Assembly: GCF_001428075.1 (NCBI RefSeq)
Contig: NZ_LMSI01000001.1
Coordinates: forward strand, 349,512-413,511
DNA: 64,000 nt
Direction of reading: 5' to 3'
Source: Arthrobacter sp. Soil764
GTDB lineage: Bacteria; Actinomycetota; Actinomycetes; Actinomycetales; Micrococcaceae
Positions 8,167-31,793 of the stretch are shown here, piece by piece. Below the pieces are notes generated by a model. It was not told the DNA's origin and ran no database searches. It saw only the letters and a program-made list of their open reading frames with translations. The first letter of the stretch is position 1. Every line of letters starts with the position of its first letter. Both the position numbers and the translations under genes were made by a program.

Positions 8167-8223
8167 CTCTCCTGTTGGAACGGCTGCCCTTCGGCGTCGG
8201 AGTCTAAGGTGATGTGCAAGGTT

Positions 8224-8253
8224 AGCGCAACAGTTATACATGCGCAATGGTAT
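8224..8253. promoter_or_regulatory. Tandem CGCAA half sites upstream of the PAP2 gene
   Basis: AGCGCAACAGTT starts at 8224 and TGCGCAATGGTAT starts at 8241. Both match the right half of the TTGCG-N4-CGCAA sites elsewhere, but the TTGCG left halves are missing. They lie upstream of the PAP2 gene and downstream of the PBP gene. Confidence 0.4.
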
Positions 8254-8286
8254 CCCCGTTTGCGGGGCCGGGCCCGTTTGCCCCGG

Positions 8287-10392
8287 CTACCGGAGCATTG
8301 ATGGGGGCGGTGCGGGGAACGGGCCGCCGGGGTATTTAGCGGCCGCGGCGTTCATGAGGTGGGCCCACTGGGTGCCTGCGATGTTGGCTCCGTCCAAGCC
8401 GGCGTAGTACTTCCCGTTGATGGTGATGTGCTCATTTGCCCATTCCGGCCCGAATCCCTTGTAGCTTCCGAACCATGAGGCGGTGGCGATGCCTGTGGTG
8501 GCGCCAACGGTCCAGGTCTGCGTGTGTCCGTCGGTGGTGCCGGTTTTGGCGAAGATGTCGTGATCCTTGTTCACAGGGATGTTATAGCCGGACCCTATGG
8601 TCAGGACCGGTTGGAGGGCGTAGGTGACACCGGCGGCAACCTCAGGATCGATGGTCTGCGTGCAGTCCGCGGGCGGCACCGGATAGTTGTGTCCCTTGGG
8701 CCCGGTGACGCTCTCCAGGGCAACCGGGGAGCAATGGACTCCGCCGGCGGCGAAGGTGGCGTACGCGGTGGCCATGTCCAGCGGCGCCACATCCTGCGTC
8801 CCGATCAGATTGGCGATGCTGGACAGGTCGTAGGGCTTGTTGGTGTGCCCGTTCTTGACTCCGGCTGCCGTGGCCATTTTCTGGATGTTGCAGAAGTCCA
8901 GTCGCGTTGCTGACTGGAACGTGATGGTGTTGATGGAGCGGTAGAGGCCTTCGAGCACGCTCATCGGGTAGTAGTGGTAGGGGTCGTCATTGGGCAGGGG
9001 CGTCTGGCCGAGCGCAGGATCGTAGGACCCGGTAGTGGTGCCGCAGCTGTTTTTCCAAGGGAATCCGGCTTTGTAGATGCGGACGGAGCCGTCCAGCCGG
9101 GTGGCCATGGATCGCCCGGAATTGAGCCACTCGGCGAAGACAAACGGTTTCATGGTGGAACCGATCTGGAAGCCGCCGGCACCATGGAGAGGCTTGCCCC
9201 GGCTGTCCGTTTCCGGAAGGGTGAGGTTGCCGGTGTAGTGTCCGGGCCCCGGCGCCGGGCTGTAGATGGTGTTCTGGGCCATGGTCAGGACCTTGCCGGT
9301 GCCGGGCTGCACGCTGACAAGGGCTGCCCCGCGCTGCAGCGGGTCCGTGGGGGGAAGTGAGGCGTTGACCTGTTCCTGTGCCACCCTTTGCAGCTCCGGG
9401 TCCAGGGTGGTGTGGATGGTCAGCCCGCCCTGGTACAGCAGTTTGCGCCGTGCAGCCTCGTCGGGACCAAAGGCGGGATCGTTCAGGATCAGGCGTTGGA
9501 CGTAGTCGCAGAAGTACGGTGACGTGGCCACGGCGCATCCTTGAGCCGACGGCTGGACGTCCAAGGCAAGGGGTGCGGCAATCGCCTTGCGGTGCTGGAC
9601 TGTGGAGATGTAACCCTGGTGGAGCATTTGGTCCAGGACTTCATTTCGCCGGGCCACCACATGGGCCGGTTCAGTGAGCGGATCGTAGTACCCGGGCCTG
9701 TTGACCACTCCTGCCAGGGCGGCTGCCTGGGGAAGGCTCAGGGCGCTTGCGGGAACGCCGAAATACTCTTTGGCTGCCATCTGGACGCCGTAGGCTCCGT
9801 TGCCGAAATAGACCAGGTTCAGGTAGCCCTGAAGGATCTGGTCCTTGGAGTATTTGTCCTCCAGTGCGACGGCGAGCTTCATCTCCCGAAGTTTGTCGCC
9901 GATGGTCCTGGCGGCGCTGGGCTTGACCTCGTCCGCCCTGCCGCTGGATATCAGCGACTGTATGAGCACGTTCTTGACGTACTGCTGGGTGAGGGTGGAC
10001 GCGCCCTGCCGGCCGCCCTGGACGTTCACATAGAGGGCCCGGAGGATGCCGGTGGGGTCGATGCCGCCGTGCTCATAGAAGCGGGAGTCCTCGATGGCCA
10101 CGATCCCTTGGCGCATGAAGGGTGATATCTGTTCCAGGCGCACCGGCTCCCGGTTCTGTGAATAGAACCGTGCGATGACCGATCCATCTTTGGCCAGCAC
10201 TTGGGACTTCCTGGCCGGCGGGTCCAGATCGAGATCAGAGGGGAGTTGATCGAAGAACCTGCCGGATGCCGCGGTCACGGTGGAGCCCAGTGCCGCGGCC
10301 GGGGCCAGGAGCCCGGCGACCAGAAAGCCGCCGATGACGCAGGCCGCAATGAAGCCGGCAGCCTTTTTCAACATGGTGTCCATAAGAAGCAT
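8287..10392 (-). CDS. Class A penicillin-binding protein (transglycosylase/transpeptidase)
   Basis: A 701-residue bifunctional peptidoglycan synthase. An N-terminal membrane anchor spans about 8-35. The glycosyltransferase 51 domain has catalytic Glu101 in EDSRFYEHGG and GASTLTQQYVKN at 130-141. The transpeptidase domain has SxxK at Ser412-Lys415 (GSTMK), SxN at 486-488 (SIN) and KTGT at 616-619. It polymerises and cross-links lipid II outside the membrane. ATG at 10392 follows AAGGA; two further in-frame ATGs (10383 and 10374) are possible starts. No PASTA domain is present. Confidence 0.93.
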   Translation of the reverse strand: MLLMDTMLKKAAGFIAACVIGGFLVAGLLAPAAALGSTVTAASGRFFDQLPSDLDLDPPARKSQVLAKDGSVIARFYSQNREPVRLEQISPFMRQGIVAIEDSRFYEHGGIDPTGILRALYVNVQGGRQGASTLTQQYVKNVLIQSLISSGRADEVKPSAARTIGDKLREMKLAVALEDKYSKDQILQGYLNLVYFGNGAYGVQMAAKEYFGVPASALSLPQAAALAGVVNRPGYYDPLTEPAHVVARRNEVLDQMLHQGYISTVQHRKAIAAPLALDVQPSAQGCAVATSPYFCDYVQRLILNDPAFGPDEAARRKLLYQGGLTIHTTLDPELQRVAQEQVNASLPPTDPLQRGAALVSVQPGTGKVLTMAQNTIYSPAPGPGHYTGNLTLPETDSRGKPLHGAGGFQIGSTMKPFVFAEWLNSGRSMATRLDGSVRIYKAGFPWKNSCGTTTGSYDPALGQTPLPNDDPYHYYPMSVLEGLYRSINTITFQSATRLDFCNIQKMATAAGVKNGHTNKPYDLSSIANLIGTQDVAPLDMATAYATFAAGGVHCSPVALESVTGPKGHNYPVPPADCTQTIDPEVAAGVTYALQPVLTIGSGYNIPVNKDHDIFAKTGTTDGHTQTWTVGATTGIATASWFGSYKGFGPEWANEHITINGKYYAGLDGANIAGTQWAHLMNAAAAKYPGGPFPAPPPSMLR

Positions 10393-19820: not shown

Positions 19821-21950
19821 CTAACCCAAACCCGACTTCGCCGTAATGGGCGCGGTGAACGAAGCAGCCGCGATCAGGTTTCCTGCCGCATCGGTAACCG
19901 TCTGCGGCGGGAAGTACGTCGGCTGTCCTGTGGCGACCCCTGAGTTCAGGGTGCCGGCACCCGAACTGCCGTTCGGTGCGTTGCCAAACGTGACAACAAG
20001 CGCATTGTTCGTGGAGTCCCAAATGACGCTGGAAGCTGTTCCCTGGGCTCCGAAGGTGGCATTGGCACCGGACAGATAGTTGCCACCCAGAGTGACCGTG
20101 CCGAGCGTGCAGCCGCTGAATGCAAGGTTCAATGTGTCATTGGTTCCGGTGTCAGAAATCGTCGCTGTGCCAGTCAGGGAGGTCCCGGTCCAGCTGGAGC
20201 AAAATTTGGTCAGATCCAGCTTTTCCGAGTAGGTGAGGGTAACGGTGTCCCCGGGATCGGCGGAGGCCTTGCTGGTGTTGGTTGAGCCGCCGTTAGTCAG
20301 CTTCACTCCGGTAACGGTCGGCGCCGCCGTGTCCTTTGTCGTCGTAGCCGCGGCAGTGGCCGTGCCCGTATTGCCTGCCGCGTCGGTGGCGGAGGCTGTG
20401 AAGGTCAGGGTGCCCTCTTTCAAACTGGAGAGGTCCATCGTCGTCGACCAGGAGGCACCGGAAGGCGTGATTGTTTTGGTCAGGGGGTTGAACGCAACGT
20501 CACGGACGGTGATGTTGACGGGGAGTCCCGCATCACCCGTTCCATTGATCAGGACCGAGGTGGCGGTGCTGCTGTTGACGAACATCGGGGCCGTGATGGT
20601 CAGAACCGGGGCCACCGTGTCTTTTGTGTCGGAGGCTGTGACGGTCGCGCTGGTGTTGCCGGCGGCGTCCTTGACGGTCACGTTGTAGGTGATCGTCCCA
20701 TCTTTGAGGGAGCCGAGGTCCAGGTTCAGCGACCAGGAGCCGCCGTTAGCAGCCGCAGTGCCCGTCACCGGAGCGGCGGACCCCGGGCTCGTGGCCGTAA
20801 CGGTCACGGACGCCCCGGCTTCGGCACTACCCGAAACAAGAACTGCAGCAACACTTCCGCTGGTCACGTACGACGGCACGTTCAAGCCCTGCGCCGGGGC
20901 CGGAGCGACGGTGTCTTTTGTGCCTGTGGCCGTCCCTCTGGCGCCCGTGTTGCCAGCCGGGTCAGTGGCGGTGGCCGTGTAGGTGACCGTGCCCTGGTCC
21001 AGGCTGCTCACGTCGGGGCTGGCGGACCAGGCTCCCGTGTCGGCGGCGGTGGCTGTTGTGGTGACGGAGTGGGCGGCGCCCGCGTCACTGGTAACGAGGG
21101 TGATCCTGGCACCGGCTTCCGCCGTTCCCGTGACCGGAACTGCGGCGACATTGGCGGAGTTCACGTAGGCCGGAATGGTGAGTGAGGGCACGGCCGGGGC
21201 CTGACTGTCGATCCACACCGCCTGCGTCTGTGCCGCGCTGGCGTTGCCGGCCTTGTCCGTGGCGAAGTAGGAGATGGTGTGCGTCCAGTCGCCCGTGACG
21301 GAAATGGTCGCAGCGGCGCCATTCACGGTCTGCTTCGCGCCGCCGTCGACCGAGTAGGTAATGGAGGCGACGCCCGAACCGGCCGGTCCGTCGTCGGCAG
21401 TGATGGTCACCGTGACCGGGCTGGTGGTGTTCCAGCCTGCAGCGTTCGGGGTGGGCGACAGGCTGGAGACCGAGGCTACCGGGGCGGTGGAGTCACTGCT
21501 GACGCCGGTGCTGCGCGGGCTCTCGGCGCCGGTCCAGAGCGCGATGGTGGGGGTGACGGTGTAGTACCAGATGCCCCCGGGGACGTTCTGTTCCGTGCAG
21601 GTCAGCGTGGTGACCGTCCCTGCGCACCCGCCTGTCGCCTGCGTTCCGGTGCCACCCGTGGCAGCCGCGTACCTGGTGACCGTGTAGCCCGTGGCCGCAC
21701 GGCCGTTCACGGTGGTGCCGGCTGCCCAGCTGACGCTGAGTGAGGCGCCGTTGGCCGTGACGGCGGGCTTTGCTCCCGGGGACAGGGCGTCCGCCGCGGC
21801 CGCGGCATTGTTGCTGCTGGTGGTGGAGGCCCAGAAGCCGTAGGCGGCGGTGGACGTGCCGAGCAGGAGCAGGACCGCCGTGACAATCCACGCCAGCCGT
21901 CCTGAAGGGAGGCGGAGGCCGAACGGCATCTTCCGGATGGCGATGCTCAT
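19821..21950 (-). CDS. Large Ig-like repeat surface protein with alternate-type signal peptide
   Basis: A 709-residue Thr/Ala/Gly-rich exported protein. After a hydrophobic segment (about 20-40) the signal region ends with STAAYGFWASTTS, matching the [A/Y]-x-W motif of SipW-dependent signal peptides. The body has a fibronectin III-like domain (about 60-150) and then several bacterial Ig-like units of about 95 residues with KDTVAP or DSQAPAVP linkers and YxxTxxDxAGNxS cores. The C-terminal domain has TLTYSEKLDLTKF and VTDAAGN, seen in secreted adhesin-like proteins. It overlaps the upstream gene by 4 bp. Likely a fibrous matrix or adhesion protein. Confidence 0.8.
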   Translation of the reverse strand: MSIAIRKMPFGLRLPSGRLAWIVTAVLLLLGTSTAAYGFWASTTSSNNAAAAADALSPGAKPAVTANGASLSVSWAAGTTVNGRAATGYTVTRYAAATGGTGTQATGGCAGTVTTLTCTEQNVPGGIWYYTVTPTIALWTGAESPRSTGVSSDSTAPVASVSSLSPTPNAAGWNTTSPVTVTITADDGPAGSGVASITYSVDGGAKQTVNGAAATISVTGDWTHTISYFATDKAGNASAAQTQAVWIDSQAPAVPSLTIPAYVNSANVAAVPVTGTAEAGARITLVTSDAGAAHSVTTTATAADTGAWSASPDVSSLDQGTVTYTATATDPAGNTGARGTATGTKDTVAPAPAQGLNVPSYVTSGSVAAVLVSGSAEAGASVTVTATSPGSAAPVTGTAAANGGSWSLNLDLGSLKDGTITYNVTVKDAAGNTSATVTASDTKDTVAPVLTITAPMFVNSSTATSVLINGTGDAGLPVNITVRDVAFNPLTKTITPSGASWSTTMDLSSLKEGTLTFTASATDAAGNTGTATAAATTTKDTAAPTVTGVKLTNGGSTNTSKASADPGDTVTLTYSEKLDLTKFCSSWTGTSLTGTATISDTGTNDTLNLAFSGCTLGTVTLGGNYLSGANATFGAQGTASSVIWDSTNNALVVTFGNAPNGSSGAGTLNSGVATGQPTYFPPQTVTDAAGNLIAAASFTAPITAKSGLG

Positions 21951-22450
21951 TTGCGCACCTCCGCTGTGACGGGAAGGTGGAAGGTGGCGCCCTGGCAGGC
22001 TGGGAGTGAGGTGGTATCCATGGCGGCCGATCCTGGAAGGGTGAGCAAGGTGGACGAGTTTGCCGGAATGAACGTAGCCGGGGACAGTGGCGCGGCGGTT
22101 CCGGTGAAGCTGACCCCAGTGGTGGTGCAGCCGGAATGTGCGGTGTCCGCCGTGGCGGGCGCGTTGGCGGTGACGCTGTAGACCTGCACGGAGTAGGGAT
22201 TGGGGTTGGTGAGGCGGAGTACGACGTCGGCAGTGCCGCCGGGAACGAGCGCCGTCTTCGGGCCGTCCCCGGCTACGAGCGCGTCCACGGTGACGGCCTG
22301 CATGCTGCCGGCGGCTGCAGATCCTGTGCCCGTTCCGCCTGCGGTCCAGAAGGCGTAGGCGCTTCCGGCGCCTGCGGCCATCAGTGTTCCCGCGAGGGCC
22401 GCTGCCTTGAGGGCACGTCCGGCCCTGGCAGTCCTGGTGCTGGTGGTCAT
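21947..22450 (-). CDS. Alternate-type (SipW-dependent) signal peptide protein
   Basis: A 167-residue exported protein whose signal ends AGSAYAFWTAGG, with the Y-A-F-W pattern typical of TasA/camelysin-like precursors. The mature part is a beta domain (VLRLTNPNPYSVQVYSV) with Cys pairs (SGCTTT, LPACQG). ATG at 22450 follows AGGGGAA and starts 1 bp after the upstream stop. It sits between two larger secreted proteins in one operon and may be a fibre subunit or cap. Confidence 0.75.
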   Translation of the reverse strand: MTTSTRTARAGRALKAAALAGTLMAAGAGSAYAFWTAGGTGTGSAAAGSMQAVTVDALVAGDGPKTALVPGGTADVVLRLTNPNPYSVQVYSVTANAPATADTAHSGCTTTGVSFTGTAAPLSPATFIPANSSTLLTLPGSAAMDTTSLPACQGATFHLPVTAEVRK

Positions 22451-22451
22451 C

Positions 22452-23588
22452 TCAGTTCCCCTGTCCTGATCCCGAGTACGCCAGCTGGAGGGTGGCACCC
22501 TTGCAGCCGTCCTGGTTGGCGGACGTGTCCAGCATTCCCACCTTGGGCCACGCAGTCTGTGTGACGCGGAGGCCGGAAAGGGAACTGCTGCCGGCCGGCA
22601 CTGCCAGTGGGTAGGGGCCGCTGTACTGGGTGATGTTGAAGTCCGCCGTGGTGCAGGGGAGGTTCCTGGCCGCGGCGCCCGCACTGCGGGTGACTCCAGC
22701 CACCGCCACCGAGATGTTGGTCAGTGCCAACGCCTTGTTGTTGGGGTTGTTGATCTGCAGGTCCAAGCCGGCCGACGTGCCGGGGGAGAGGGTTTCGGGG
22801 ACGTTGCCGGAGAGGACGAACTGCTTGATGGTGGCATCCAGGACCAGCTGCACGTTCGCGTAGGCGTACTGTGACTTCCCGCCGGAGTCCTTGCCAGTGC
22901 CCACGAGGTACAGGCTGTAGCTTCCGGTGGGGGACGCGGCCGTGGTTGCCACCTGCAGTGTGGTGGAGGTGCCGGTCACCGGATTGGGCGAGAACGATGC
23001 CGTGGCACCGGATGGAAGTCCGCCCAGTATGCTGAAGGTGACCGGACCGGAGAGGTTGTTCCGGGTGAGCTGCAGGGTATATACGGCCGTTGCGCCGGGC
23101 GGAACCGTGAGGGAGTCCGGGGAGGCGGCGACTGAGATCGCCGAGGAGATCTTGTAATTGACGGTGAGGCCGGCGGTGACGCTGCCGGAGACCTTGCCGC
23201 TGGTGCCGGTGATGGTCAGGGAGTTGGTGCCCGCAGGGGTGGTGGTGGCGCTGGAGACGTTCAGGGTTGAGGTTGCGGTGCTTCCGGAGTTAAGGGTGAC
23301 GGACGACGGCGTGAAGGCACCTGCCGCTCCGGCCGGAAGTCCCGCGGTGGCCAGGTTGACGTTGCCGCTGAAGCCTCCGGTGGACGTCACCGTCACCGTA
23401 TAGGCGGCGGACTGGCCCTGCTGGACGGACTGGCTGGCGGGGGAGACCTGCATGGTGATGCCCGGCTTGGGATTGCTGGCCGCCGCGATCAGTGCTCCGG
23501 CGCTGGCCAGCACCAGCAGCAGCGCCACCAACGCGGCCTTGATACCGGTCCGCTTACCGCGCCGCGGATGTCCGTCCTGTTTGTGCAC
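22452..23588 (-). CDS. Secreted Ig-like domain protein
   Basis: A 378-residue exported protein with a basic N-terminus (KQDGHPRRGKRTGIK), one hydrophobic helix at about 17-37, and three beta domains. The first two contain GFSGNVNLATAGLPAGA and NNLSGPVTFSILGGLPSGATASFSPNPV, a repeat common in bacterial Ig-like/invasin-type surface proteins. The C-terminal third carries two Cys pairs and the ending DGCKGATLQLAY, similar to the end of the 24119 gene product (DACKGATITVTV). It lacks the Trp motif of its neighbours and starts a three-gene operon. Confidence 0.72.
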   Translation of the reverse strand: MHKQDGHPRRGKRTGIKAALVALLLVLASAGALIAAASNPKPGITMQVSPASQSVQQGQSAAYTVTVTSTGGFSGNVNLATAGLPAGAAGAFTPSSVTLNSGSTATSTLNVSSATTTPAGTNSLTITGTSGKVSGSVTAGLTVNYKISSAISVAASPDSLTVPPGATAVYTLQLTRNNLSGPVTFSILGGLPSGATASFSPNPVTGTSTTLQVATTAASPTGSYSLYLVGTGKDSGGKSQYAYANVQLVLDATIKQFVLSGNVPETLSPGTSAGLDLQINNPNNKALALTNISVAVAGVTRSAGAAARNLPCTTADFNITQYSGPYPLAVPAGSSSLSGLRVTQTAWPKVGMLDTSANQDGCKGATLQLAYSGSGQGN

Positions 23589-23620
23589 CCCGTGCCCCTT
23601 CCACTTTGGTGCGATTGACG

Positions 23621-23659
23621 GCGGGCCGGGGACGGGGTTTTCACCCGTCCCCGGCCCGC
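23621..23659 (-). terminator. Strong hairpin separating two surface-protein units
   Basis: A perfect 16-bp GC stem (GCGGGCCGGGGACGGG and complement) with a 7-nt loop sits between the gene ending at 23667 and the operon starting at 23588. It probably ends most transcription of the upstream gene. Confidence 0.7.
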
Positions 23660-23666
23660 TCGTTTG

Positions 23667-24119
23667 TTAGTTGCTGCCGACGGTTACCGTGATGGTGGCG
23701 CCCTTGCAGGCGTCCTGGTTGATGGCAGGGTCGTCATTAAGGGTCAGGGTTCCGACGCCCAGATTCGTGGTAGCCCCAGCAAGCACAGAGGTAGGGCCAA
23801 CGGGAACGGTAGCCTCGAACCATCCGGGCTTGCAGCCGGCGTCGCTGGTCGTGACTACGGGGTTGATCAGAGTAACCTGCGTGTCGCTGGCGTTCGGGTT
23901 GGTAGCCGAGTACGTGATCTTCTGCGGCGTCCCCGGGGCAACACCTGGATCCACCGTCACGCTGATGGAGACCGGGTCCGTCCCGGCCGCAGCCTTGGCC
24001 GAGCCGTTGCCCGAGCCCGTGGTGCTCCAGTAGGCGTAGGCGGCGCCGCCGCCGACGGCCACCAGAGCAGCGGAAGCGGCAACAGCGGCGATCTTGTTCT
24101 TCTTGGTCATTGGGCGCAT
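23667..24119 (-). CDS. Alternate-type (SipW-dependent) signal peptide protein
   Basis: A 150-residue exported protein. The signal MRPMTKKNKIAAVAASA runs to GGAAYAYWSTTGSG, giving the Y-A-Y-W motif. The mature part is a single beta sandwich with two Cys (DAGCKPGW and DACKGAT). ATG at 24119 follows AGGAG by 7 nt. It resembles the 21947-22450 product in size and layout and could be the main subunit, being the first gene of the locus with its own terminator. Confidence 0.75.
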   Translation of the reverse strand: MRPMTKKNKIAAVAASAALVAVGGGAAYAYWSTTGSGNGSAKAAAGTDPVSISVTVDPGVAPGTPQKITYSATNPNASDTQVTLINPVVTTSDAGCKPGWFEATVPVGPTSVLAGATTNLGVGTLTLNDDPAINQDACKGATITVTVGSN

Positions 24120-24705
24120 GGAAAGACTCCTAGTAAGTGTGATTGAGAACCCGTTCCCCCATGAGCGGCCCCATCCAGGTGCCTTTCGGTGGATCGATGA
24201 CCCAATACTCGCCGGACCGAAATAGGCACAACAACACGTACTGCTACCCGTCTTTCCAGGCACTTGCGATATCCACTACTTGGATGACCCTGCCATTACT
24301 CGCAACTGTGCCGTGGCCTTGACCTGCAGAAATTGCCGTGGAGCCCGAGAACTCAGGGCAGGGGACGCATAACGAGTAGCGCCTGGAAATAGGCCAGAAA
24401 ACGCCGCTGACCTCGCTCGCGAGCGTTCACATGTGGAGGATTAGCGAGAGTCTACTTCTTCAAAAACCAGGAACTGTCGTCGTCGCTCGCGTGACCGGAA
24501 TTCGACTCCGATCTTCTGCCACGGACCTGCCTTGCCGCGGTTGCACCAGCCAGTGCCGGGCTTATGGCTTAGTCCTGACGCGCAGAGCTTATATCCCCCA
24601 ATATCCTGCCGCGCACCCCCATTTGCTGTCCTTTTATCTAGCTCCCGAAACCGCGTCGGGTGCATAGTGGTTCTAGCCGGGGGCACTAGGAGTTAGGAGT
24701 GCTTG
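24120..24705. other. 586-bp intergenic region with Lrp-gene remnant
   Basis: No full gene is supported. The left part should hold the promoter of the gene starting at 24119. From 24441 the DNA matches the last 37 bp of the Lrp gene at 25777, then changes to lower-GC sequence that continues into the two ORFs downstream. AGGAG at 24695 serves the ORF at 24706. Confidence 0.6.
24441..24478 (-). repeat. Orphan 3' tail of an Lrp-type gene
   Basis: On the minus strand this segment encodes FLVFEEVDSR plus stop, against FLVFEDVDTR plus stop at the end of the intact Lrp gene (25777-25813). By hand count 32 of about 38 bases match, and similarity stops right after. It is either a decayed second copy or an attachment-site-like duplication of the gene end. 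Confidence 0.65.
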
Positions 24706-25389
24706 GTGGGGGACGAAGAGCAGCGCCGCAAAGCAGTCTCGGCAGTGCTGGATAACGGAATGACGCAGGTATCCGTTTCCAAGCAACACGGCATCACGCT
24801 TCACCGTTTGCGCGTATGGCTCGCGGAGGAGCGAGCCCGCCGGGCGCATCTTGCAGATGTGGAACGCTATCGTGCCAGGGAATCTACCGAGGCGCGGCTC
24901 CAGCGCCTGACGGCCGAGTGGGCGCAACACGAGGTCCAGCCCGGGCAAATCTCGGAAGGGCTAAAGAAGGCGGCCAAGGTGCACGTCTTCTTCGACTACA
25001 TCATTGGCGGCCCAATTTTGGTGATTGCCGCCATCCTTGGCCTATTGCTTTCGCTTTTTTCTGTGCTGATTATTCTCGACTTCTTCAAGCTAGCCATGAA
25101 CGGCTGGTATGCCGCAGCCATGTCCCTCTTCGCCGGTTTAGCTGACCTGCTGCTCGTCGTAAGCATTTGGTCTCTTGCCCAGTATTTCAAGGGCTTAATC
25201 TTCAGGTCTTTCGCGCCCTTCTCATATGCAGTGTTCAATCTCCAGCAAGCTTGGCTGCTGTTGGAGAAGCGCCAAGAGGCGCTCTTTGCCGCGCCCAGCA
25301 GTGAGCAGGACAAAATTGACCGGCATACGATTACCAAGGGGATAGGCAGGGCCGTCCATGTTCTGGACGCAACGCGCGTCGGGGCGTGA
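24706..25389 (+). CDS. Membrane protein with N-terminal HTH-like segment, unknown function
   Basis: A 227-residue protein. Residues about 5-45 (RRKAVSAVLDNGMTQVSVSK...HGITLHRLRVWL) look like a homeodomain-type HTH of transposase or terminase small-subunit type. A charged helix follows, then two hydrophobic helices at roughly 105-130 and 140-165, and a charged C-terminus. GTG at 24706 lies 6 nt after AGGAG. Composition is clearly AT-richer than neighbours, suggesting recent acquisition. No family is recognised. Confidence 0.6.
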   Translation: MGDEEQRRKAVSAVLDNGMTQVSVSKQHGITLHRLRVWLAEERARRAHLADVERYRARESTEARLQRLTAEWAQHEVQPGQISEGLKKAAKVHVFFDYIIGGPILVIAAILGLLLSLFSVLIILDFFKLAMNGWYAAAMSLFAGLADLLLVVSIWSLAQYFKGLIFRSFAPFSYAVFNLQQAWLLLEKRQEALFAAPSSEQDKIDRHTITKGIGRAVHVLDATRVGA

Positions 25390-25756
25390 CCACGGCTCGC
25401 GGATCAGCAGACGCAACGAGCGAAACGCCCGCCGAAAGGTTGCTGCCTATGTTGCCAAAGCGGAGGAACTGCTGTGGGACAAAGGGCGTCCTGGTCGACT
25501 GCAGGCGATCGACGTACTGCAGATTGCTGCCTATGAAACCGTGCTGCGGAAGTGGACCCTGCACGATTTTAATGAGGTTGCCGATCCTGAGCCCATCTCA
25601 GTTTGGCGGCGACGGATCTCGCCATTGCTGAAAGGAGCAGCCGCATTTGGTGGAGCGCTCGGACCTATTGCATGGCAGGTTTTCGGTGCAGAGGATCAAA
25701 GCCCAGGTCACTTCATTCGCGTGTACCTTCAGAGCCGCGGCTTACTGGATCAGTAG
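25358..25756 (+). CDS. Hypothetical protein overlapping the preceding gene in another frame
   Basis: A 132-residue frame starting 32 bp inside the previous gene, with no ribosome site. The product is basic at first (NERNARRKVAAYVAKAEELLW) and ends with a GAAAFGGALGPIAWQVF stretch. Coding-like composition continues smoothly across the junction, so the two frames may be halves of one gene broken by a frameshift. Function unknown. Confidence 0.45.
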   Translation: MFWTQRASGRDHGSRISRRNERNARRKVAAYVAKAEELLWDKGRPGRLQAIDVLQIAAYETVLRKWTLHDFNEVADPEPISVWRRRISPLLKGAAAFGGALGPIAWQVFGAEDQSPGHFIRVYLQSRGLLDQ

Positions 25757-25776
25757 TGTGAAGCAGTTCTGACTTA

Positions 25777-26241
25777 TTAGCGAGTATCCACGTCTTCAAA
25801 AACAAGGAATGTCTGGGTATCCAGCACGCCGGGCATGGTCTGCAGTTGGTCGAAGATGACCCGGCGGAGGTCGATGTTGTCCACGGCGCGGACCAGCAGG
25901 ATCACGTCGAAGTCGCCGCCCACCAGGGCGATGTGGTGCACCTCCGGGATGGCGCCGAGCTGGTCCCGCAGTTCGCGCCAGGAGTCCTGTTTCAGCTTCA
26001 GCGTCACGTACGCCGAGGACTTCAGCCCGGCCTTGATGGGATCCACCAGTGCCGTGAACCGGGTCAGCACCCCGTCGCCGGTCAGCCGGGCAATCCGGCT
26101 GTAGGCGTGCGCACGGGAGATGTGCACGTTCTCCGCCACCTGCGTCACGGACATCCGGCCGTCCCGGGTGAGTTCACTGATGATTCGCCGGTCTATCTCG
26201 TCCAGCGCCACCTGATCGCTGCCGGCATCCTTGCCCGCCAT
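25777..26241 (-). CDS. Lrp/AsnC family transcriptional regulator
   Basis: A 154-residue regulator with an N-terminal HTH (about 12-60, LDEIDRRIISELTRDGRMSVTQVA) and a C-terminal ligand-binding RAM domain (VHHIALVGGDFDVILLV). It is the likely regulator of the bkd operon, as Lrp-like BkdR proteins sense branched-chain amino or keto acids elsewhere. ATG at 26241 follows GGGAG by 8 nt. Its upstream DNA shares spaced blocks with the bkd control region. Its last 37 bp are echoed at 24441. Confidence 0.9.
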   Translation of the reverse strand: MAGKDAGSDQVALDEIDRRIISELTRDGRMSVTQVAENVHISRAHAYSRIARLTGDGVLTRFTALVDPIKAGLKSSAYVTLKLKQDSWRELRDQLGAIPEVHHIALVGGDFDVILLVRAVDNIDLRRVIFDQLQTMPGVLDTQTFLVFEDVDTR

Positions 26242-26271
26242 TGTGCCCACTCCCGTCGTAACCCGGATCGC

Positions 26272-26390
26272 TGCAAATCGTCTCCCATACTAGGCAGATT
26301 TGAGCAGCGTCTCCGATGCAGAGCCAGGCAGCGGATACGAAACAGGCCCCCAGCGGAGCATGGGGACGAATAATGCCTACTTTAGGACGG
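26272..26390. promoter_or_regulatory. Lrp-type control region, copy A
   Basis: This aligns without gaps to 27797-27915, with 74 of 119 bases identical by hand count. Conserved blocks start at offsets 1 (TGCAAATCGTCT), about 31 (GCAGC-TCTCC), 62 (GGATACGAAAC) and 91 (GGG-ACGAATA), near 30 bp apart, as expected for Lrp octamers binding one DNA face. It lies upstream of the minus-strand Lrp gene; its plus-strand end (AGGACGG) mimics the bkdA ribosome site but no bkd-like gene follows. Confidence 0.65.
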
Positions 26391-26405
26391 CGGTGGCTGC
26401 ACCTG

Positions 26406-26648
26406 TCAGGAGCGTGCGGAAGGGGACGCTCCCGGGTGGGACTCGAACTGTTCAGCTGCGCCCCGAATAAAATCGCAGTCGCTGGGGGAGAGGATCGTTT
26501 CACCGTGCCGGTCCTGTTCCAGCTGGGCTCCGGTGCTCTTCATGATGCCTGCCGCGACAGTGCGCGGAAGGATGGTGCACCCGGGATTCTCCACCAGCCA
26601 CTGCCGTGTTTCCGCGTCGAGCTGGTCCCACAACTTTTGTATTTCCAT
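26406..26648 (-). CDS. Small acidic protein, possibly DosR-type controlled
   Basis: An 80-residue protein (MEIQKLWDQLDAETRQWLVEN...) with an amphipathic N-terminus and two Cys. No domain is recognised. ATG at 26648 has only a weak GGTGGGG upstream; GTG at 26669 has none. A DosR-like palindrome lies 315 bp upstream on the same transcriptional side, and no other gene points away from it, so this gene is the best candidate target. Confidence 0.6.
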   Translation of the reverse strand: MEIQKLWDQLDAETRQWLVENPGCTILPRTVAAGIMKSTGAQLEQDRHGETILSPSDCDFIRGAAEQFESHPGASPSARS

Positions 26649-27027
26649 AACGAATGCCCCACCTGTCACTGTTGTTGAGGAAATGCAGCCCCGCTAGGGT
26701 GTCCCGGGACGGTTCTTATTGGACGTTGGCTGAAGAGTTGCCCGCCAATGAGAGGCGGAGGGGACCACGCTGTCCCCTCCGCAACCATCCCCGCAGCAAC
26801 AACCCCCAACGGGCTGAAACCCGGCACCTGTTGCGGAGCCTTTCCCCTGTAGGAGCGGAAAGCGGAAGTTGACGCAAAGACATTTTCGTCAATTCCCTGA
26901 CATCCGAGTGTGCCCCTTGGGTGATCAGAGGTCAACGAAATCTTCAAGATGACGGACAAGTAGGGACTAAAGTCCCGGTTGCGAAAAAACGCCATTAAAG
27001 GCCGAAAGTGGCCGCAACCCTGCGGCG
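26649..27027. other. 379-bp intergenic region with hairpin and DosR-like box
   Basis: No gene is supported. A perfect 11-bp stem (GCGGAGGGGAC with complement, loop CACGCT) occupies 26755-26782 without a T-run. TTGACG and CGTCAA form a loose dyad near 26875-26900. The DosR-like box is at 26963-26976. The length and structure leave room for a 5' leader or small RNA on the minus strand. Confidence 0.5.
26963..26976. promoter_or_regulatory. DosR/DevR-like box
   Basis: GGGACTAAAGTCCC is a perfect 14-bp palindrome equal to the core of the mycobacterial DosR consensus (GGGACT-WW-AGTCCC); the flanks fit only partly. It lies 51 bp past the stop of the ArsR-type gene and upstream of the minus-strand gene at 26406-26648. 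Confidence 0.6.
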
Positions 27028-27642
27028 TCAGGCGTTGCTGCTGGCCTCTACGCTGCGGAGCTCGTCCAGGGCGGCCTCCAGCAGGGTCATGTGGCAGGTC
27101 CGCGCCGTCATGATGAGGCGTCCGGCTGCCGCCTCTGAGCTGCAGCCGGTGCGGTCGGCTATGGCCCGGCATGCGTCCGCGATCACCGAACGCGACACCA
27201 ACGCTGTTTCCGGCGCCGAGATCCGATCGCCCCACGTCGCGGAGAATGGCTCCTCCTCCGGCAGCGGACCAAGGGAGCTGAGGGCGGCCGCTGTCCGGGC
27301 GTGCAGGACGGACCGGGCGGCGGCGAGCAGTTCGGCCGCCTCCGGGAAGGCCAGCCGGTACACCAGGCGGCCGCCGGAGCGGGCGCAATCAATCAGTTGC
27401 TGCGCGCGCATCTGCGCCAGGTGCCGGGACAGGTGGGAGGGTTTCACACCGGTGCGCTCGCAGACCTCGGGGATGGACAACTCGCCCTGGGAGAGCAGCT
27501 CCAGGATGGTGGCCCGGACCGGATGCGCCACGGCCTTGAACACCTCCGCTGCAGCGGACATTGAGGGCCCGGCGAAACCGCCATCAACAGACTGGTCCGC
27601 CGAGGTGTGATAGCGCTCAACACCAATGTCGTAGCTGTTCAT
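27028..27642 (-). CDS. ArsR-type winged-helix regulator with C-terminal ANTAR-like domain
   Basis: A 204-residue protein. Residues about 30-100 form an ArsR-like wHTH (AVAHPVRATILELLSQGE, then VKPSHLSRHLAQMRAQQLI). Residues about 148-197 (SRSVIADACRAIADRTGCSS... LLEAALDEL) align position by position with the ANTAR domain of the GAF-ANTAR protein at 35779, including the SR/TR-VI-AC and CS-EAA cores. ANTAR domains bind paired RNA hairpins for antitermination, so this may be a dual DNA/RNA regulator. No metal-binding Cys cluster is evident. ATG at 27642 follows AAGGAG by 7 nt. Confidence 0.72.
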   Translation of the reverse strand: MNSYDIGVERYHTSADQSVDGGFAGPSMSAAAEVFKAVAHPVRATILELLSQGELSIPEVCERTGVKPSHLSRHLAQMRAQQLIDCARSGGRLVYRLAFPEAAELLAAARSVLHARTAAALSSLGPLPEEEPFSATWGDRISAPETALVSRSVIADACRAIADRTGCSSEAAAGRLIMTARTCHMTLLEAALDELRSVEASSNA

Positions 27643-27796
27643 GCCCTGGCTCCTTTCGGTTTCGGATCCCATTATCTGACGTGATCCGGGTTCATGTCCC
27701 ATGGCTGCCGGAAAAATAATTGCGGACCGGCAGGCGCGCCCGGATGCCGCCACCGCCGATTTGTCCACAACCCCCGCCCGTAACCCGCGTCACAGT

Positions 27797-27915
27797 TGCA
27801 AATCGTCTTCCGGAACAGCCCTCTGTGCGCAGCTTCTCCACGATTTGCTGAGGTGCTGGATACGAAACCTGCTTCAGGACAATACTGGGAACGAATAGTG
27901 GCTACCGAAGGACGG
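27797..27915 (+). promoter_or_regulatory. Lrp-type control region, copy B, upstream of bkdA
   Basis: The homologue of copy A at 26272-26390. It also holds an inverted pair GCAAATCGT (27798) and ACGATTTGC (27840). AGGACGG at its right end is the ribosome site of bkdA. It is the probable operator/promoter through which the Lrp protein controls branched-chain keto acid oxidation. Confidence 0.7.
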
Positions 27916-27919
27916 ACCA

Positions 27920-29149
27920 ATGACGATCTCCGCAGACCACACCGCGCCGCACAGCACCAGCACGGAAGCAGCAGAGAATGCGCTGACGGAAGCTGTGAAG
28001 AAGTTCGGCATCACGGTGGAGGATTACATGCTCCCCGCCCGCCACCAGATCCAGATGGTGGACCCGGACGGCCGGCTTATCCCGGAAAGTGAGCAGGGCA
28101 CCCAGCCCGGCCACGAATACCCCGTGCCCGGCGATGACGAACTGCTGGCAGCATACGAACGCCTCGTCGTCGGCCGCCGCGTCAACGACCAGAACTCCGC
28201 CCTGGTCCGGCAGGGCCGCATGGCCGTCTACCCCTCCAGCCACGGCCAGGAAGCCTGCCAGGTGGCCGCCGCCCTGTGCCTCTCCGACGCTGACTGGATG
28301 TTCCCCACCTACCGGGATGCCGTGGCCGTGATGACCCGCGGCGTGGACCCCGTGCAGGTGATGACCATCTTCCGCGGCGACTGGCACGGCGGTTACGACC
28401 CCCTTCAATGCAAGGTGGGCATCCAGTGCACCCCGCTGACCACGCAGCTGCTGCACGCCGTCGGTGTGGCCCACGCCGCCAAGCTCCGCGGCGAGGACAC
28501 CGTGGTACTGGCCATGTGCGGCGACGGCGCCACCAGCGAAGGCGACTTCCACGAAGCCCTGAACTTCGCCGCCGTCTTCCACCTGCCGGTGATCTTCTTT
28601 GTCCAGAACAACAAGTACGCCATCTCGGTGCCGCTGGCACACCAGTCCGTGGCGCCGTCGCTCGCCCACAAGGCAGTGGGCTACGGCATGGCCGGCGAAC
28701 GCGTGGACGGCAACGACGTCGTCGCCCTCCTCGCGGTCCTGGACCGCGCCGTGAAGCTGGCCCGCGAAGGCTCGGGCCCGCTGCTGGTGGAAGCCAACAC
28801 CTACCGCATGCAGGCCCACACCAACGCCGACGACGACACCCGCTACCGCGAAAGCGCTGAAGTTGCGGAGTGGCGGGCCAAGGACCCGGTCACCCGGATG
28901 CGCACGTACCTGACGGACCGCGGCTTGTTGGACGACGACGGCGAGGTGCGGATCCGCGAAAAGGCGGAAGCAGTTGCCACCCAGCTGCGGGACGGCCTCA
29001 GCGAGGACGTGGCCGTGGACCCGCAGGAACTCTTCCGCCACGTCTTCTCCGCGCCCACCCCGCAGTTGAAGGAACAGTCCGCCATGCTCGCCGACGAGCT
29101 CGCCCGCGACGCAGCAGCATCGTCTTCAGATCAGGAGGCCGCAAAGTGA
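27920..29149 (+). CDS. bkdA: 2-oxo acid dehydrogenase E1 component, alpha subunit (branched-chain/pyruvate type)
   Basis: A 409-residue TPP enzyme subunit. GDGATSEGDFHEALNFAAVF followed by NNKYAIS is the TPP-binding motif, and RYRESAEV includes the regulatory-loop region. The two-subunit E1 architecture next to E2 marks a Bkd or Gram-positive Pdh complex. The Lrp-like regulator and shared control region favour branched-chain 2-oxo acids from Val, Leu and Ile, giving precursors for branched fatty acids. Pyruvate remains possible. The gene overlaps the beta subunit gene by 4 bp. Confidence 0.88.
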   Translation: MTISADHTAPHSTSTEAAENALTEAVKKFGITVEDYMLPARHQIQMVDPDGRLIPESEQGTQPGHEYPVPGDDELLAAYERLVVGRRVNDQNSALVRQGRMAVYPSSHGQEACQVAAALCLSDADWMFPTYRDAVAVMTRGVDPVQVMTIFRGDWHGGYDPLQCKVGIQCTPLTTQLLHAVGVAHAAKLRGEDTVVLAMCGDGATSEGDFHEALNFAAVFHLPVIFFVQNNKYAISVPLAHQSVAPSLAHKAVGYGMAGERVDGNDVVALLAVLDRAVKLAREGSGPLLVEANTYRMQAHTNADDDTRYRESAEVAEWRAKDPVTRMRTYLTDRGLLDDDGEVRIREKAEAVATQLRDGLSEDVAVDPQELFRHVFSAPTPQLKEQSAMLADELARDAAASSSDQEAAK

Positions 29150-30258
29150 GCCCCACCATCACCACCTCCTCCGAGGCCAACGGCAACGTGTCTGCCGCCA
29201 CGGCCCGGGCTGCAGCCTCCGCCGCCGCGTCCGCCGAAGCGGCCGGCCCCCAGCCCGTCACCATGGCCAAGGCACTGAACACCGCTCTGGCCGACGCCAT
29301 GCACGCGGACTCCTCCGTCCTGGTCTTCGGCGAGGACGTGGGCATGCTGGGCGGCGTCTTCCGCATCACCGACGGCCTCACCGCCACGTTCGGCGAGCAG
29401 CGCTGCTTCGACACCCCGCTGGCCGAATCCGGCATCGTGGGCATGGCCGTGGGCATGGCCATCAACGGGATGCGCCCGGTGATCGAAATGCAGTTCGACG
29501 CATTCGCCTACCCGGCGTTTGAACAGATCGTCAGCCACGTGGCCAAGATGCACAACCGCACCAAGGGCGCCGTGAAGCTCCCCATGGTCATCCGCATCCC
29601 GTACGGCGGCGGCATCGGGGGAGTGGAGCACCACTGCGACTCCTCCGAGTCCTACTATGCCCACACCGCCGGCCTGAAGGTCTACACCCCGGCCACCGTG
29701 GCGGACGGCTACCGGATGCTCCGCGAAGCGATCGACTCGGACGATCCGGTGGTGTTCATGGAGCCCAAGAAGATGTACTGGACCAAGGACTCGGTGGACC
29801 TGGGCGAGCTGCGGCGCCTTCACACGGAAGGTACGACGGCGGGACGCACCTCCGAAGGCCGGGCCGCCGTCGCGCGTCCCGGCACGGACGCGACGCTGAT
29901 TGCCTACGGCCCGTCCGTCCCCACCGCTTTGGCTGCGGCCGAGGCTGCTGCTTTGGAGGGGCGGTCACTGGAAGTCATCGACGTGCGCACCATTGTCCCG
30001 TTCGATGACGACACCGTATGCGCGTCCGTCCGCAAGACCGGCCGGGCCGTGGTGATCGCCGAGGCGCACGGCTTCGCATCCGTCTCCTCCGAGATCGTGG
30101 CCCGGGTCCAGGAGCGCTGCTTCCACTACCTGGCCGCCCCCATCCGCCGCGTCACAGGATTCGACGTCCCCTACCCGGCACCCAAACTCGAGAAGTACTA
30201 CCTGCCCGGCGTGGACCGCATCCTCGACGCCGTTGACGATCTTCAGTGGGAGAACTGA
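29146..30258 (+). CDS. bkdB: 2-oxo acid dehydrogenase E1 component, beta subunit
   Basis: A 370-residue subunit. GTG at 29146 overlaps the E1-alpha stop (GTGA) and follows AGGAGG. An Ala/Ser-rich extension of about 35 residues precedes the domain start at PVTMAKALNTALADAM. Motifs include FGEDVGMLGGVFR, DTPLAESGIVGMAVGMA, GVEHHCDSSESYYAHTAGLKV and a C-terminal transketolase fold. With E1-alpha it forms the decarboxylase heterotetramer. Confidence 0.9.
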   Translation: MSPTITTSSEANGNVSAATARAAASAAASAEAAGPQPVTMAKALNTALADAMHADSSVLVFGEDVGMLGGVFRITDGLTATFGEQRCFDTPLAESGIVGMAVGMAINGMRPVIEMQFDAFAYPAFEQIVSHVAKMHNRTKGAVKLPMVIRIPYGGGIGGVEHHCDSSESYYAHTAGLKVYTPATVADGYRMLREAIDSDDPVVFMEPKKMYWTKDSVDLGELRRLHTEGTTAGRTSEGRAAVARPGTDATLIAYGPSVPTALAAAEAAALEGRSLEVIDVRTIVPFDDDTVCASVRKTGRAVVIAEAHGFASVSSEIVARVQERCFHYLAAPIRRVTGFDVPYPAPKLEKYYLPGVDRILDAVDDLQWEN

Positions 30259-30260
30259 CC

Positions 30261-31793
30261 ATGAGCGAACCACGCGTGTTTTTGTTGCCTGACCTGGGCG
30301 AGGGCCTCACGGAAGCCGAACTGGTGGCCTGGCATGTTTCCGTTGGCGACGAGATTGCCGTTGACCAGCCCATCGCCGAGGTGGAGACCGCCAAGTCCGC
30401 CGTGGAGGTGCCGTCCCCGTACGCCGGGATCGTGGCCGAGCTGCATGGGAAGCCGGGGGAGACCCTGGACGTGGGGAAGCCGCTGATCTCGGTCACGCCT
30501 CTTTCTACGGGTGTCGCCGCGGATGATGCCGCCCCCGCCCCTTCGCCGGACGGCCATGCTGCAAGCAGCATGGCGTCCGGCTCAGGAAGGCCCGATGCCA
30601 CTCCCGGGGCGGCATCATCCGCGTCGACTGAGGCGGAAACGTATCGCGAGGAGGAAAAGGCCGGATCCGGCAATGTCTTGATCGGGTATGGCACTCCCGG
30701 TGGCCACGGCGTTGCCCGGCGCACCCGTGCCCCCAAAACCTCCGTTTCTGTGCTCGAGCCGCAGGAAACCAAACCTGCCCAGCCCACGGAAGACGACCTC
30801 ACCCTCCTGCGCACGCGCGTGCCCGGGAAACTTGGCGCCGTCATCTCGCCGCTGGTCCGGCGCATGGCCCGGGAGCACGGCGTCGATCTCGGTGACATCT
30901 CCGGCTCCGGCGACAGCGGCCTCATCATGCGCCGCGACGTTGAGGCTGCGCTCCGGACGACGGCGCCCGCGGCAACCCCCGACGCCAAACCCGAACAAGC
31001 CAAGCCAGCGGAAACCAGGCCTCTCGAGAAACCAGCAAGTGCGCCGCTGGAAGCGCAGGCAGCCAAGGGCGTGGATGCCCGCACCGGGCTTCCCATTGCC
31101 GCCCGCACCCCGGTCCGCGGAGTCCGCAAGGCCGTGGCCGCCAATATGGCCCGCAGCCGCTCGGAGATTCCGGAAGCAACCGTGTGGGTGGACGTGGATG
31201 CCACCGCCCTGATGGAACTCCGCGGGGAACTCAAGGCCAACGGCGCCGAGGTTCCCGGCCTGCTGGCGTTCATCGCGCGGTTCGTCACTGCGGGGCTGAA
31301 AAAGTACCCGGAGCTGAACACGCGGATCGAAACCGCTGGGGACGGGTCCCAGGAAATCGTCGCGTTTGACGGCGTCAACCTCGGCATCGCCGCGCAGACC
31401 GACCGGGGCCTTGTGGTGCCCTCGGTCCGGGCCGCGGAGAAGCTGACCGCCCGGGAACTGGACGCGGAGATCCGGCGCCTCACCGACGTCGCACGCCAGG
31501 GCAAGGCGACCCCTACGGAACTGGGCAGCGGCACCTTCACGCTGAACAACTACGGCGTGTTCGGGGTGGACGGGTCCGCGGCGATCATCAACCACCCGGA
31601 AGTGGCCATCGTCGGCGTCGGCCGGATCATCGACAAGCCGTGGGTGGTCAAGGGCGAGCTGGCGGTGCGCAAGGTCACCGAGCTGACCCTGACGTTCGAC
31701 CACCGCGTGTGCGACGGCGGCACAGCAGCAGGCTTCCTCCGCTTCGTGGCGGACGCCATCGAAAACCCGACGTCGCTGCTGGCTGATATCTGA
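30261..31793 (+). CDS. bkdC: Dihydrolipoyl acyltransferase (E2) of the 2-oxo acid dehydrogenase complex
   Basis: A 510-residue protein with one lipoyl domain (1-80, lipoyl Lys in VETAKSAVEV), an Ala/Pro-rich linker, a peripheral subunit-binding domain (about 190-235, ISPLVRRMAREHGVDL) and the catalytic acyltransferase domain with the terminal TFDHRVCDGGTAAGFL active-site motif. It starts 2 bp after E1-beta. No E3 (lipoamide dehydrogenase) gene follows, so E3 must be supplied from elsewhere. Confidence 0.93.
   Translation: MSEPRVFLLPDLGEGLTEAELVAWHVSVGDEIAVDQPIAEVETAKSAVEVPSPYAGIVAELHGKPGETLDVGKPLISVTPLSTGVAADDAAPAPSPDGHAASSMASGSGRPDATPGAASSASTEAETYREEEKAGSGNVLIGYGTPGGHGVARRTRAPKTSVSVLEPQETKPAQPTEDDLTLLRTRVPGKLGAVISPLVRRMAREHGVDLGDISGSGDSGLIMRRDVEAALRTTAPAATPDAKPEQAKPAETRPLEKPASAPLEAQAAKGVDARTGLPIAARTPVRGVRKAVAANMARSRSEIPEATVWVDVDATALMELRGELKANGAEVPGLLAFIARFVTAGLKKYPELNTRIETAGDGSQEIVAFDGVNLGIAAQTDRGLVVPSVRAAEKLTARELDAEIRRLTDVARQGKATPTELGSGTFTLNNYGVFGVDGSAAIINHPEVAIVGVGRIIDKPWVVKGELAVRKVTELTLTFDHRVCDGGTAAGFLRFVADAIENPTSLLADI

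What the first reader, a model, noticed from the sequence alone, without database searches (positions are those of the whole stretch)
24441..27915. Lrp gene bracketed by both ends of a second copy of itself
The intact minus-strand Lrp gene (25777-26241) has upstream region 26272-26390. A matching 3' tail (FLVFEEVDSR stop) sits at 24441-24478, and a matching upstream region lies at 27797-27915 just before bkdA. The order and orientation are exactly those expected if about 3.3 kb of DNA with its own Lrp gene replaced the body of a resident Lrp gene, leaving the resident tail and promoter at the edges. The ancestral state would be the compact lrp-bkd divergent pair.
Basis: partly seen in the sequence, partly recalled or inferred. 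Interest (0 to 1): 0.72.

Follow-up and report, generated by a model that had tools for sequence, protein, structure and literature searches.

The report
Scars of repeated regulator-locus duplication
A conserved regulator gene and its partner operon in soil Arthrobacter bacteria appear to have been doubled again and again, with unrelated genes in between, and then trimmed back, leaving stray gene ends and a shared promoter split in two.

Summary
A 39-bp copy of the lrp 3' end lies at 24440-24478 (85%), and the whole lrp-bkdA intergenic region (IG) is present twice, 26235-26390 and 27753-27915 (0 of 1000 resampled pairs score as high). The compact divergent lrp-bkdA pair is the common state: 99 of 133 genomes counted. 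One single replacement of a resident lrp is not supported: the IG duplication occurs in relatives without the tail, G029 lacks the tail, and G006 has another insert there. Other genomes suggest the origin. In two, an lrp fragment directly abuts a bkdA fragment; in two, bkd scars follow lrp at IG distance; one carries two lrp-bkd units 28 kb apart. Secondary lrp fragments (10 of 78 loci) all share the orientation of the intact gene. Best explanation: repeated duplicative integration of lrp-bkd units with cargo, then loss of redundant parts; the window keeps traces of three copies. The IG copies have divided the promoter: a -10-like lrp hexamer is kept in 27 of 27 lrp-side and 3 of 27 bkdA-side copies, from 26 genomes. 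The recombination route, and foreign origin in most cases, are inferred.

The parts
24440..24478 (-). displaced 3' tail of an lrp gene (remnant of copy A)
   Evidence: alignment; contiguous with DNA that lies downstream of lrp in G029
24479..24702 (.). spacer; its last ~45 bp match the ORF1 upstream region of G115 (80%, E 0.002), no bkd scar detected
24703..25389 (+). ORF1: IS3-OrfA-like HTH followed by hydrophobic segments (cargo)
   Evidence: HTH_Tnp_1 above cut-off, IS3 model far below its cut-off; over most of its length only in G000 and G115 of 150 genomes
25358..25756 (+). ORF2: partner of ORF1, no Pfam or NCBIfam family (cargo)
25777..26241 (-). intact lrp (copy B)
   Evidence: 93.5% DNA identity to G029, 94.4% to G006
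26235..26390 (.). IG2: lrp-side copy of the lrp-bkdA intergenic region; lrp -10-like site kept, bkdA half decayed
26409..26669 (-). small ORF ('sm', about 80 aa), no Pfam family
27031..27642 (-). ArsR-type regulator with a C-terminal stretch weakly like ANTAR (below cut-off)
27753..27915 (.). IG1: bkdA-side copy (copy C); bkdA side kept, lrp start codon lost
27920..29149 (+). bkdA (E1-alpha)
29146..30258 (+). bkdB (E1-beta)
30246..31793 (+). bkdC (E2)

Best explanation
The lrp-bkdABC unit is a recurrent site of duplicative integration. DNA carrying a related lrp-bkd unit (or part of one) plus unrelated genes is added next to the resident unit through homology in lrp or bkd, giving two units in the same orientation with the other genes between them. 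Redundant parts are then deleted, but one intact lrp, one intact bkdABC and one working promoter for each must remain. What stays behind is cargo bordered by stray lrp tails, stray bkd pieces or an extra intergenic region. In the window this happened at least twice. An older event left lrp (copy B) with its own IG2 on one side of the small ORF and ArsR genes, and IG1-bkdABC (copy C) on the other. A younger event left ORF1-ORF2 and the tail of a third lrp (copy A). The two IG copies then specialised, IG2 for lrp and IG1 for bkd. Shown: the remnants, their orientation, fused and two-unit stages in other genomes, recurrence, and the unequal conservation of the two IG copies. Inferred: that this genome passed through such stages, that the added DNA was foreign (clear only in some genomes), the relative ages, and the recombination route (single crossover of a circle, tandem duplication during transformation, or other).
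For: Secondary lrp fragments at E 1e-5 or better in 10 of 78 loci, all 10 in the orientation of the intact gene, 7 of them reaching the lrp 3' end within 4 nt. In G095 the lrp fragment (6578-6880) is followed at once by a bkdA fragment (6881-7204); in G217 the lrp fragment ends at 1877, where bkdA nt 388-466 begins: second units that lost their middle. In G138 a 35-bp bkdA and a 95-bp bkdB scar follow the lrp-side IG, and in G206 a bkdB scar lies at about the same distance from lrp. G181 keeps IG plus 207 nt of an extra lrp beside bkdA. G120 has two units 28 kb apart on one contig, one decayed; their bkdB pieces are 85.8% alike while the intact one is 92.3% like G180. Fragments in G009, G110 and G122 are clearly closer to other species' lrp than to their own (own rank 33, 67 and 24). 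Displaced bkdC 3' pieces occur at the other end of the unit in G008, G122, G189 and G192. Of 150 genomes, G115 alone besides G000 has ORF1 and ORF2 over most of their length, right after bkdC in the same direction, the place and direction the two-unit model predicts. Orphan 3' tails: lrp 6 of 73, bkdA 0 of 68, bkdB 0 of 62, bkdC 1 of 65, other genes of the same loci 6 of 725 (lrp against other, Fisher p 2.8e-4). lrp -10-like hexamer: 45 of 46 compact, 27 of 27 IG2, 3 of 27 IG1.
Against: No bkd scar was found in the window between tail and ORF1 or between the IG copies, so the two-unit stage is inferred here from other genomes. Of the eight loci with an lrp 3' fragment only two, G095 and G217, have a bkd piece abutting it; one-sided insertion would explain the other six as well. 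In one search four of nine fragments (G192, G095, G116, G149) are closest to their own genome's lrp and two more (G074, G217) nearly so, which fits local duplication as well as transfer. Not everything is in direct orientation: the decayed unit of G120 has inverted bkdC pieces, G005 a 38-bp inverted bkdB match and G093 repetitive matches both ways. G192 has a bkdA piece on the far side of its lrp piece, which needs a third unit. No plasmid record covers 80% of lrp-bkdA, so no circular vehicle is seen. Of the six 'other' tails in the control one is the displaced lrp piece of G116 itself and two are 22 and 33 bp. The third IG remnant of G069 is only 50 bp.
Confidence: 0.57

Rival explanations
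1. Homology-facilitated illegitimate recombination, one side at a time: donor DNA pairs with lrp (or bkd) at one end and is joined at the other end by a short or no match inside the resident gene. The stray tail is simply the part of the resident gene beyond the join; no second unit ever existed.
For: Tail start points vary widely (lrp nt 31 to 429), as random joins would; six of eight lrp 3' fragments have no bkd piece beside them. Authors of PMC5361080 propose a process akin to it for displaced ends in Vibrio T6SS clusters (passages). In the window the last 37 nt of lrp differ from G029 and G006 more than the rest (7 of 37 against 23 of 428; 5 of 37 against 21 of 428), as if brought in.
Against: Does not predict lrp and bkdA pieces abutting (G095, G217), bkd scars behind the lrp-side IG (G138, G206), two units on one contig (G120), or a complete second intergenic region.
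Confidence: 0.25
2. Purely local duplication of the host's own DNA followed by decay, with unrelated insertions and no transfer of lrp-bkd DNA between species.
For: In G180 and G138 the two IG copies are 88-94% alike (L211-L213); four of nine lrp fragments are closest to their own genome's lrp.
Against: The G009, G110 and G122 fragments match other species' lrp better than their own and the two G120 units are no closer to each other than to other species.
Confidence: 0.12
3. Site-specific integration into the lrp 3' end by a recombinase acting in trans, the tail and lrp end being attachment sites.
For: Three related genomes (G000, G006, G075) have different inserts bordered by the lrp end and a short tail.
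Against: Repeat length and start differ from case to case; no tyrosine or serine recombinase among the 20 cargo proteins (one IS481-type transposase, in G217); does not explain IG copies or bkd pieces.
Confidence: 0.06
4. One reading: one 3.3-kb segment with its own lrp replaced the body of one resident lrp.
For: Order and orientation of the two fragments in the window; in the sister pair G181 and G192 a 5' piece to nt 207 and a 3' piece from nt 170 exist, but in different genomes.
Against: The two marks have different distributions; the window lrp agrees with the species tree.
Confidence: 0.05

Closest known systems
Integrase-poor hotspots of gene transfer at core genes (PMC5635113, Oliveira and colleagues 2017; passages read)
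   Same: variable genes between conserved core genes, often without recognisable mobility genes, attributed to homologous recombination in the flanking core genes
   Different: here the core genes themselves are left as extra fragments and a shared promoter is divided; the double recombination proposed there would by itself leave no such scars (my inference)
Displaced effector ends and orphan immunity arrays in Vibrio cholerae T6SS clusters (PMC5361080, 2017; passages read)
   Same: successive insertions at one conserved anchor push old 3' ends downstream
   Different: anchor is a regulator and metabolic operon, no effector-immunity logic; remnants include pieces of a second operon
Merodiploids with tandem duplications made by transformation in Streptococcus pneumoniae (PMC3784515, 2013; passages read)
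   Same: partial diploidy in direct repeat caused by recombination
   Different: laboratory duplications, often large, made with self DNA and repeats; here natural, small, with other genes in between and partly foreign copies
Single-crossover integration of circularised incoming DNA (PMC3240628; abstract and outline read)
   Same: would directly give unit-cargo-unit in direct orientation
   Different: no circular donor seen here

Membership tests
Gene-transfer hotspot at core genes | conserved flanking genes, variable content between them in many genomes | tested here: met
   34 of 133 genomes have 740 bp to 20 kb between lrp and bkdA, with differing genes where looked at
Gene-transfer hotspot at core genes | no recombinase of its own | tested here: inconclusive
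   of 20 cargo proteins none matched a tyrosine or serine recombinase, one was an IS481-type transposase; not all cargo was scanned
Merodiploidy by duplicative integration | second copies in direct orientation and in unit order | tested here: met
   lrp fragments 10 of 10 and bkdA fragments 5 of 5 in the same orientation; G095 and G217 in unit order. Exceptions: inverted bkdC pieces inside the decayed G120 unit, a 38-bp inverted bkdB match in G005, repetitive matches in G093; G192 needs three units
Merodiploidy by duplicative integration | extant stage with two largely complete units | tested here: met
   G120 contig 44; the second unit has intact lrp and a broken bkdABC
Merodiploidy by duplicative integration | bkd scars within the window's own inserts | tested here: not met
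Homology-facilitated illegitimate recombination | one homologous and one non-homologous junction per event | tested here: inconclusive
   variable tail starts fit, but donor junctions are unknown
Integrative element with attachment repeats | fixed core repeat at both borders | tested here: not met
   repeat length ranges from about 25 nt (G006, by eye) to 434 nt (G149)

The most novel reading that the evidence does not exclude
The lrp-bkd unit works as an integrase-free carrier: surface-polysaccharide, secreted-protein and toxin-antitoxin genes travel between Arthrobacter species attached to it, enter by recombination with the resident unit, and the divergent promoter is passed on by being doubled and divided each time, so the operon behaves like the backbone of a mobile element without any mobility gene.
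Probability: 0.2. Interest if true: 0.7.

Novelty: new variant of a known kind. Interest (0 to 1): 0.5.

Why it matters
Hotspots of gene transfer without integrases are known, but their mechanism is usually inferred from recombination rates. Here one locus keeps a graded series of scars (two units, fused lrp-bkdA pieces, lone tails, doubled promoters) that makes the route readable and testable. It also gives 26 genomes, many of them probably sharing one old event, in which a divergent promoter was doubled and its halves specialised, with two sequence blocks kept in both copies that are candidates for Lrp binding sites.

Tried and rejected
Site-specific integration: variable repeats, no tyrosine or serine recombinase in the cargo scanned. 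Plasmid vehicle: of 89 plasmid records with a match none covers 80% of lrp-bkdA, and ORF1 has no plasmid match. Cargo as defence genes: ORF1, ORF2 and the small ORF have no PADLOC match; the ArsR-type protein matches CRISPR-associated regulators over residues 27-116, its HTH part. Literature, in the held open-access library only: searches (5 listed of 5; 4 of 4) listed nothing on the lrp-bkd locus of Arthrobacter; others (6 listed of 18; 2 of 2) nothing on a doubled divergent promoter or orphan anchor ends of this kind; (8 listed of 18) no study of natural transformation in the genus. Tail on the tree: 9 changes for 10 genomes, no better than shuffled labels (mean 9.4), as expected for many separate events; compact or expanded needs 11 (shuffled mean 17.4, minimum 11).

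Cut-offs and drops: the tails of the window, G006 and G075 do not reach the E 1e-5 cut-off and are not among its 10 of 78; those of G006 and G075 were found by eye and written out. One search left out the second loci of G120 and G138. One search used rows shown, whose listings are cut: 148 lrp and 136 bkdA entries pasted, of 198 and 197 genomes with a match in 206; G125 and G062 have the two genes on different contigs. The tree has 52 of 206 genomes, mostly the near clade; class labels were set by hand. In one search predicted genes of weak codon signal and five loci (second copies, short contigs, a placeholder) were dropped. In some searches the 46 compact IGs come from 45 genomes and the 27 IG1 and IG2 pairs from 26; the IG1 of G135 is the one beside its broken bkdA.

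Full report
Observation. The tail copy is 24440-24478, 85% identical to the last 37 nt of lrp with its stop. The upstream copy is larger than stated: 26235-26390 against 27753-27915, from the bkdA ribosome-binding-site region to the first codons of lrp, so nearly the whole divergent intergenic region (IG) is present twice. I call the copy beside lrp IG2 and the copy beside bkdA IG1. Between them lie a small ORF of about 80 codons and an ArsR-type regulator; between lrp and the tail lie ORF1 and ORF2.

The usual state. Searches covered 206 genomes of the genus. Where their cut listings showed both lrp and bkdA on one contig (133 genomes), 99 are compact and divergent with 153-270 bp between the genes and 34 are expanded, from 740 bp to 20 kb. 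The two genes are also close neighbours in records of Tsukamurella, Embleya, Nonomuraea and Rhodococcus sp. USK10.

Two events, not one. In G029 (identical Lrp protein) the IG duplication, small ORF and ArsR gene are present, but lrp runs straight into its normal downstream DNA; both tail copies of the window align to that one tail. G006, sister of G029 on an rpoB-rpoC tree of 52 genomes (6160 columns), has a different insert of about 0.6 kb at the lrp end with a short displaced tail. G075 has a glycosyltransferase there, again with a displaced tail, and right after lrp a stretch like the 3' end of ORF2. G001, next to this clade on the tree, and G133 have the IG duplication and the small ORF without ArsR and without a detected tail. 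The IG duplication is thus more widespread than the tail and looks older; G029 may have lost a tail, and spread of the IG duplication between species is not excluded. The window lrp is 93.5% identical to that of G029 and 94.4% to G006, the two highest of seven relatives compared, in keeping with the tree, so the body of lrp was probably not imported. Its last 37 nt are more divergent (7 of 37 against G029, 5 of 37 against G006) and may have been.

What the remnants are. In one search lrp has secondary fragments at E 1e-5 or better in 10 of 78 loci, bkdA in 4 of 69, bkdB in 1 of 69 (38 bp, inverted), bkdC in 8 of 66, of which the matches in G093 and G126 are short or repetitive. All 10 lrp and 5 bkdA fragments have the orientation of the intact gene. 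Seven of the ten lrp fragments reach the end of the gene within 4 nt; G181 and G122 keep 5' parts. In G095 and G217 the lrp fragment is fused directly to a bkdA fragment, in the order and direction of a second lrp-bkd unit that has lost its middle. In G138 small bkdA and bkdB scars come right after the lrp-side IG and before the cargo, and in G206 a bkdB scar lies at about the same distance from lrp. G181 keeps 207 nt of an extra lrp attached to the bkdA-side IG; G069 has a 50-bp third IG remnant between its two. G135 keeps the 5' part of an extra bkdA beside the small ORF, about 8 kb before the intact bkdA, with a Mur-ligase-type gene between. G120 carries two units 28 kb apart on one contig, the second with intact lrp and broken bkd genes including inverted bkdC pieces, and the copies are no closer to each other than to other species. 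Displaced bkdC 3' pieces occur in G008, G122, G189 and G192. I read these as stages of one process: doubling of the unit with other DNA in between, then trimming. Of the eight loci with an lrp 3' fragment only two show an abutting bkd piece, so for the other six a simpler one-sided insertion is possible.

Application to the window. Under this model the window holds parts of three units: the tail (A), lrp with IG2 (B), IG1 with bkdABC (C). A check that was not used to build the model is ORF1-ORF2. Of the 150 genomes only G000 and G115 have both over most of their length (three others match only the ORF1 HTH). G115 corresponds to A. oryzae CC159, locus L039. There the pair lies directly after bkdC in the same direction, which is where the model places it in a unit A whose bkdABC has since been lost: tail A, (lost bkd), ORF1, ORF2, lrp B. 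No bkd scar remains in the window between tail and ORF1, so this last step is inference.

How often. Within these loci lrp stands out: orphan 3' tails for 6 of 73 lrp genes, 0 of 68 bkdA, 0 of 62 bkdB, 1 of 65 bkdC, and 6 of 725 other predicted genes (lrp against other p 2.8e-4); of the six others one is the lrp piece of G116 itself and two are 22 and 33 bp. This is a local control; a whole-genome one could not be run. On the tree the compact or expanded state needs at least 11 changes, and the tail 9 for 10 genomes, so the process is recurrent. Origin of the copies is mixed: of nine fragments three (G009, G110, G122) are clearly closer to other species' lrp than to their own, four (G192, G095, G116, G149) are closest to their own, two (G074, G217) nearly so. 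In G180 and G138 the IG copies are 88-94% alike and could be local.

What is carried. Cargo scanned by Pfam includes acyltransferases (G149, G192, two in G110), family 2 glycosyltransferases (G217, G075), a subtilase (G116), an LGFP-PKD protein and a phosphoesterase (G009), a polysaccharide deacetylase and a response regulator (G007), EAL proteins and a near-cut-off Hpt protein (G074), a RES-domain protein with a weakly Xre-like partner (G180), an MFS transporter (G176, as L087), a LytR-CpsA-Psr protein (G219, as L086), nucleotidyl transferase, epimerase and glycosyltransferase genes (G149), and an IS481-type transposase (G217). Surface and signalling functions are frequent; no tyrosine or serine recombinase was among those scanned, which are not all.

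The divided promoter. Aligning 46 compact IGs (45 genomes) with 27 IG1 and 27 IG2 copies (26 genomes, many probably sharing one old event) shows a clear partition. The bkdA ribosome-binding-site block is kept at 0.98 in compact, 0.94 in IG1, 0.38 in IG2. A -10-like hexamer for lrp (TA, three bases, T) is present in 45 of 46 compact, 27 of 27 IG2 and 3 of 27 IG1. Two blocks, GTTTCGTATCC and GGAAGACGAATTGT, are kept in all three classes (0.98, 1.00, 0.87 and 0.85, 0.88, 0.89). I infer that these are sites needed by both promoters, most simply Lrp operators; that is untested, as is promoter activity. The need to keep both promoters would also explain why inserts between lrp and bkdA come with a second IG: those without one would cut a gene off from its control region.

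Mechanism. Single crossover with a circularised fragment (a route named in the abstract of PMC3240628) or tandem duplication during transformation (passages of PMC3784515) would give direct repeats. Homology-facilitated illegitimate recombination, proposed for displaced ends in Vibrio (passages of PMC5361080), explains lone tails but not fused lrp-bkdA pieces. Recombination in core genes at hotspots without integrases is a known general pattern (passages of PMC5635113). I give duplicative integration and loss 0.57.

Novelty. Known ingredients in a new combination: the anchor is a core regulator-operon unit, and intermediate stages and the promoter partition are visible. The literature searches named under Tried and rejected listed no description of this locus; they covered one open-access library.

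Noticed in passing
window 27031-27642 (-): ArsR-type HTH protein with a C-terminal half weakly like ANTAR (24.2 bits, below the cut-off of 27.3), conserved among six homologues aligned; an ArsR-ANTAR fusion would be unusual (recalled, not searched).
   Followed up: partly
window 24703-25756 (+): Two-gene module: IS3-OrfA-like HTH followed by hydrophobic segments, plus an unknown partner; over most of their length only in G000 and G115 of 150 genomes, beside opposite ends of the same lrp-bkd unit.
   Followed up: partly
window 26409-26669 (-): 80-codon family without Pfam match; 184 of 206 genomes of the genus have at least one match at E 0.001, up to 8 in one genome.
   Followed up: partly
L225 (G135) about 4940-6274: Mur-ligase-type gene (recalled as CapB/PgsB-like) between a broken bkdA 5' end and the intact bkdA: possible capsule genes added at the same locus.
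   Followed up: no
L223 (G149) about 3362-10379: Cluster with nucleotidyl transferase, DUF3492 glycosyltransferase and epimerase (recalled as Pel-like) inside a 20-kb expansion between lrp and bkdA.
   Followed up: no
window 19821-24146 (-): Neighbouring secreted-looking proteins (camelysin-like by recall, no family hit for the one scanned or the one) and a Big_13 repeat protein just downstream of lrp, shared with near relatives.
   Followed up: no
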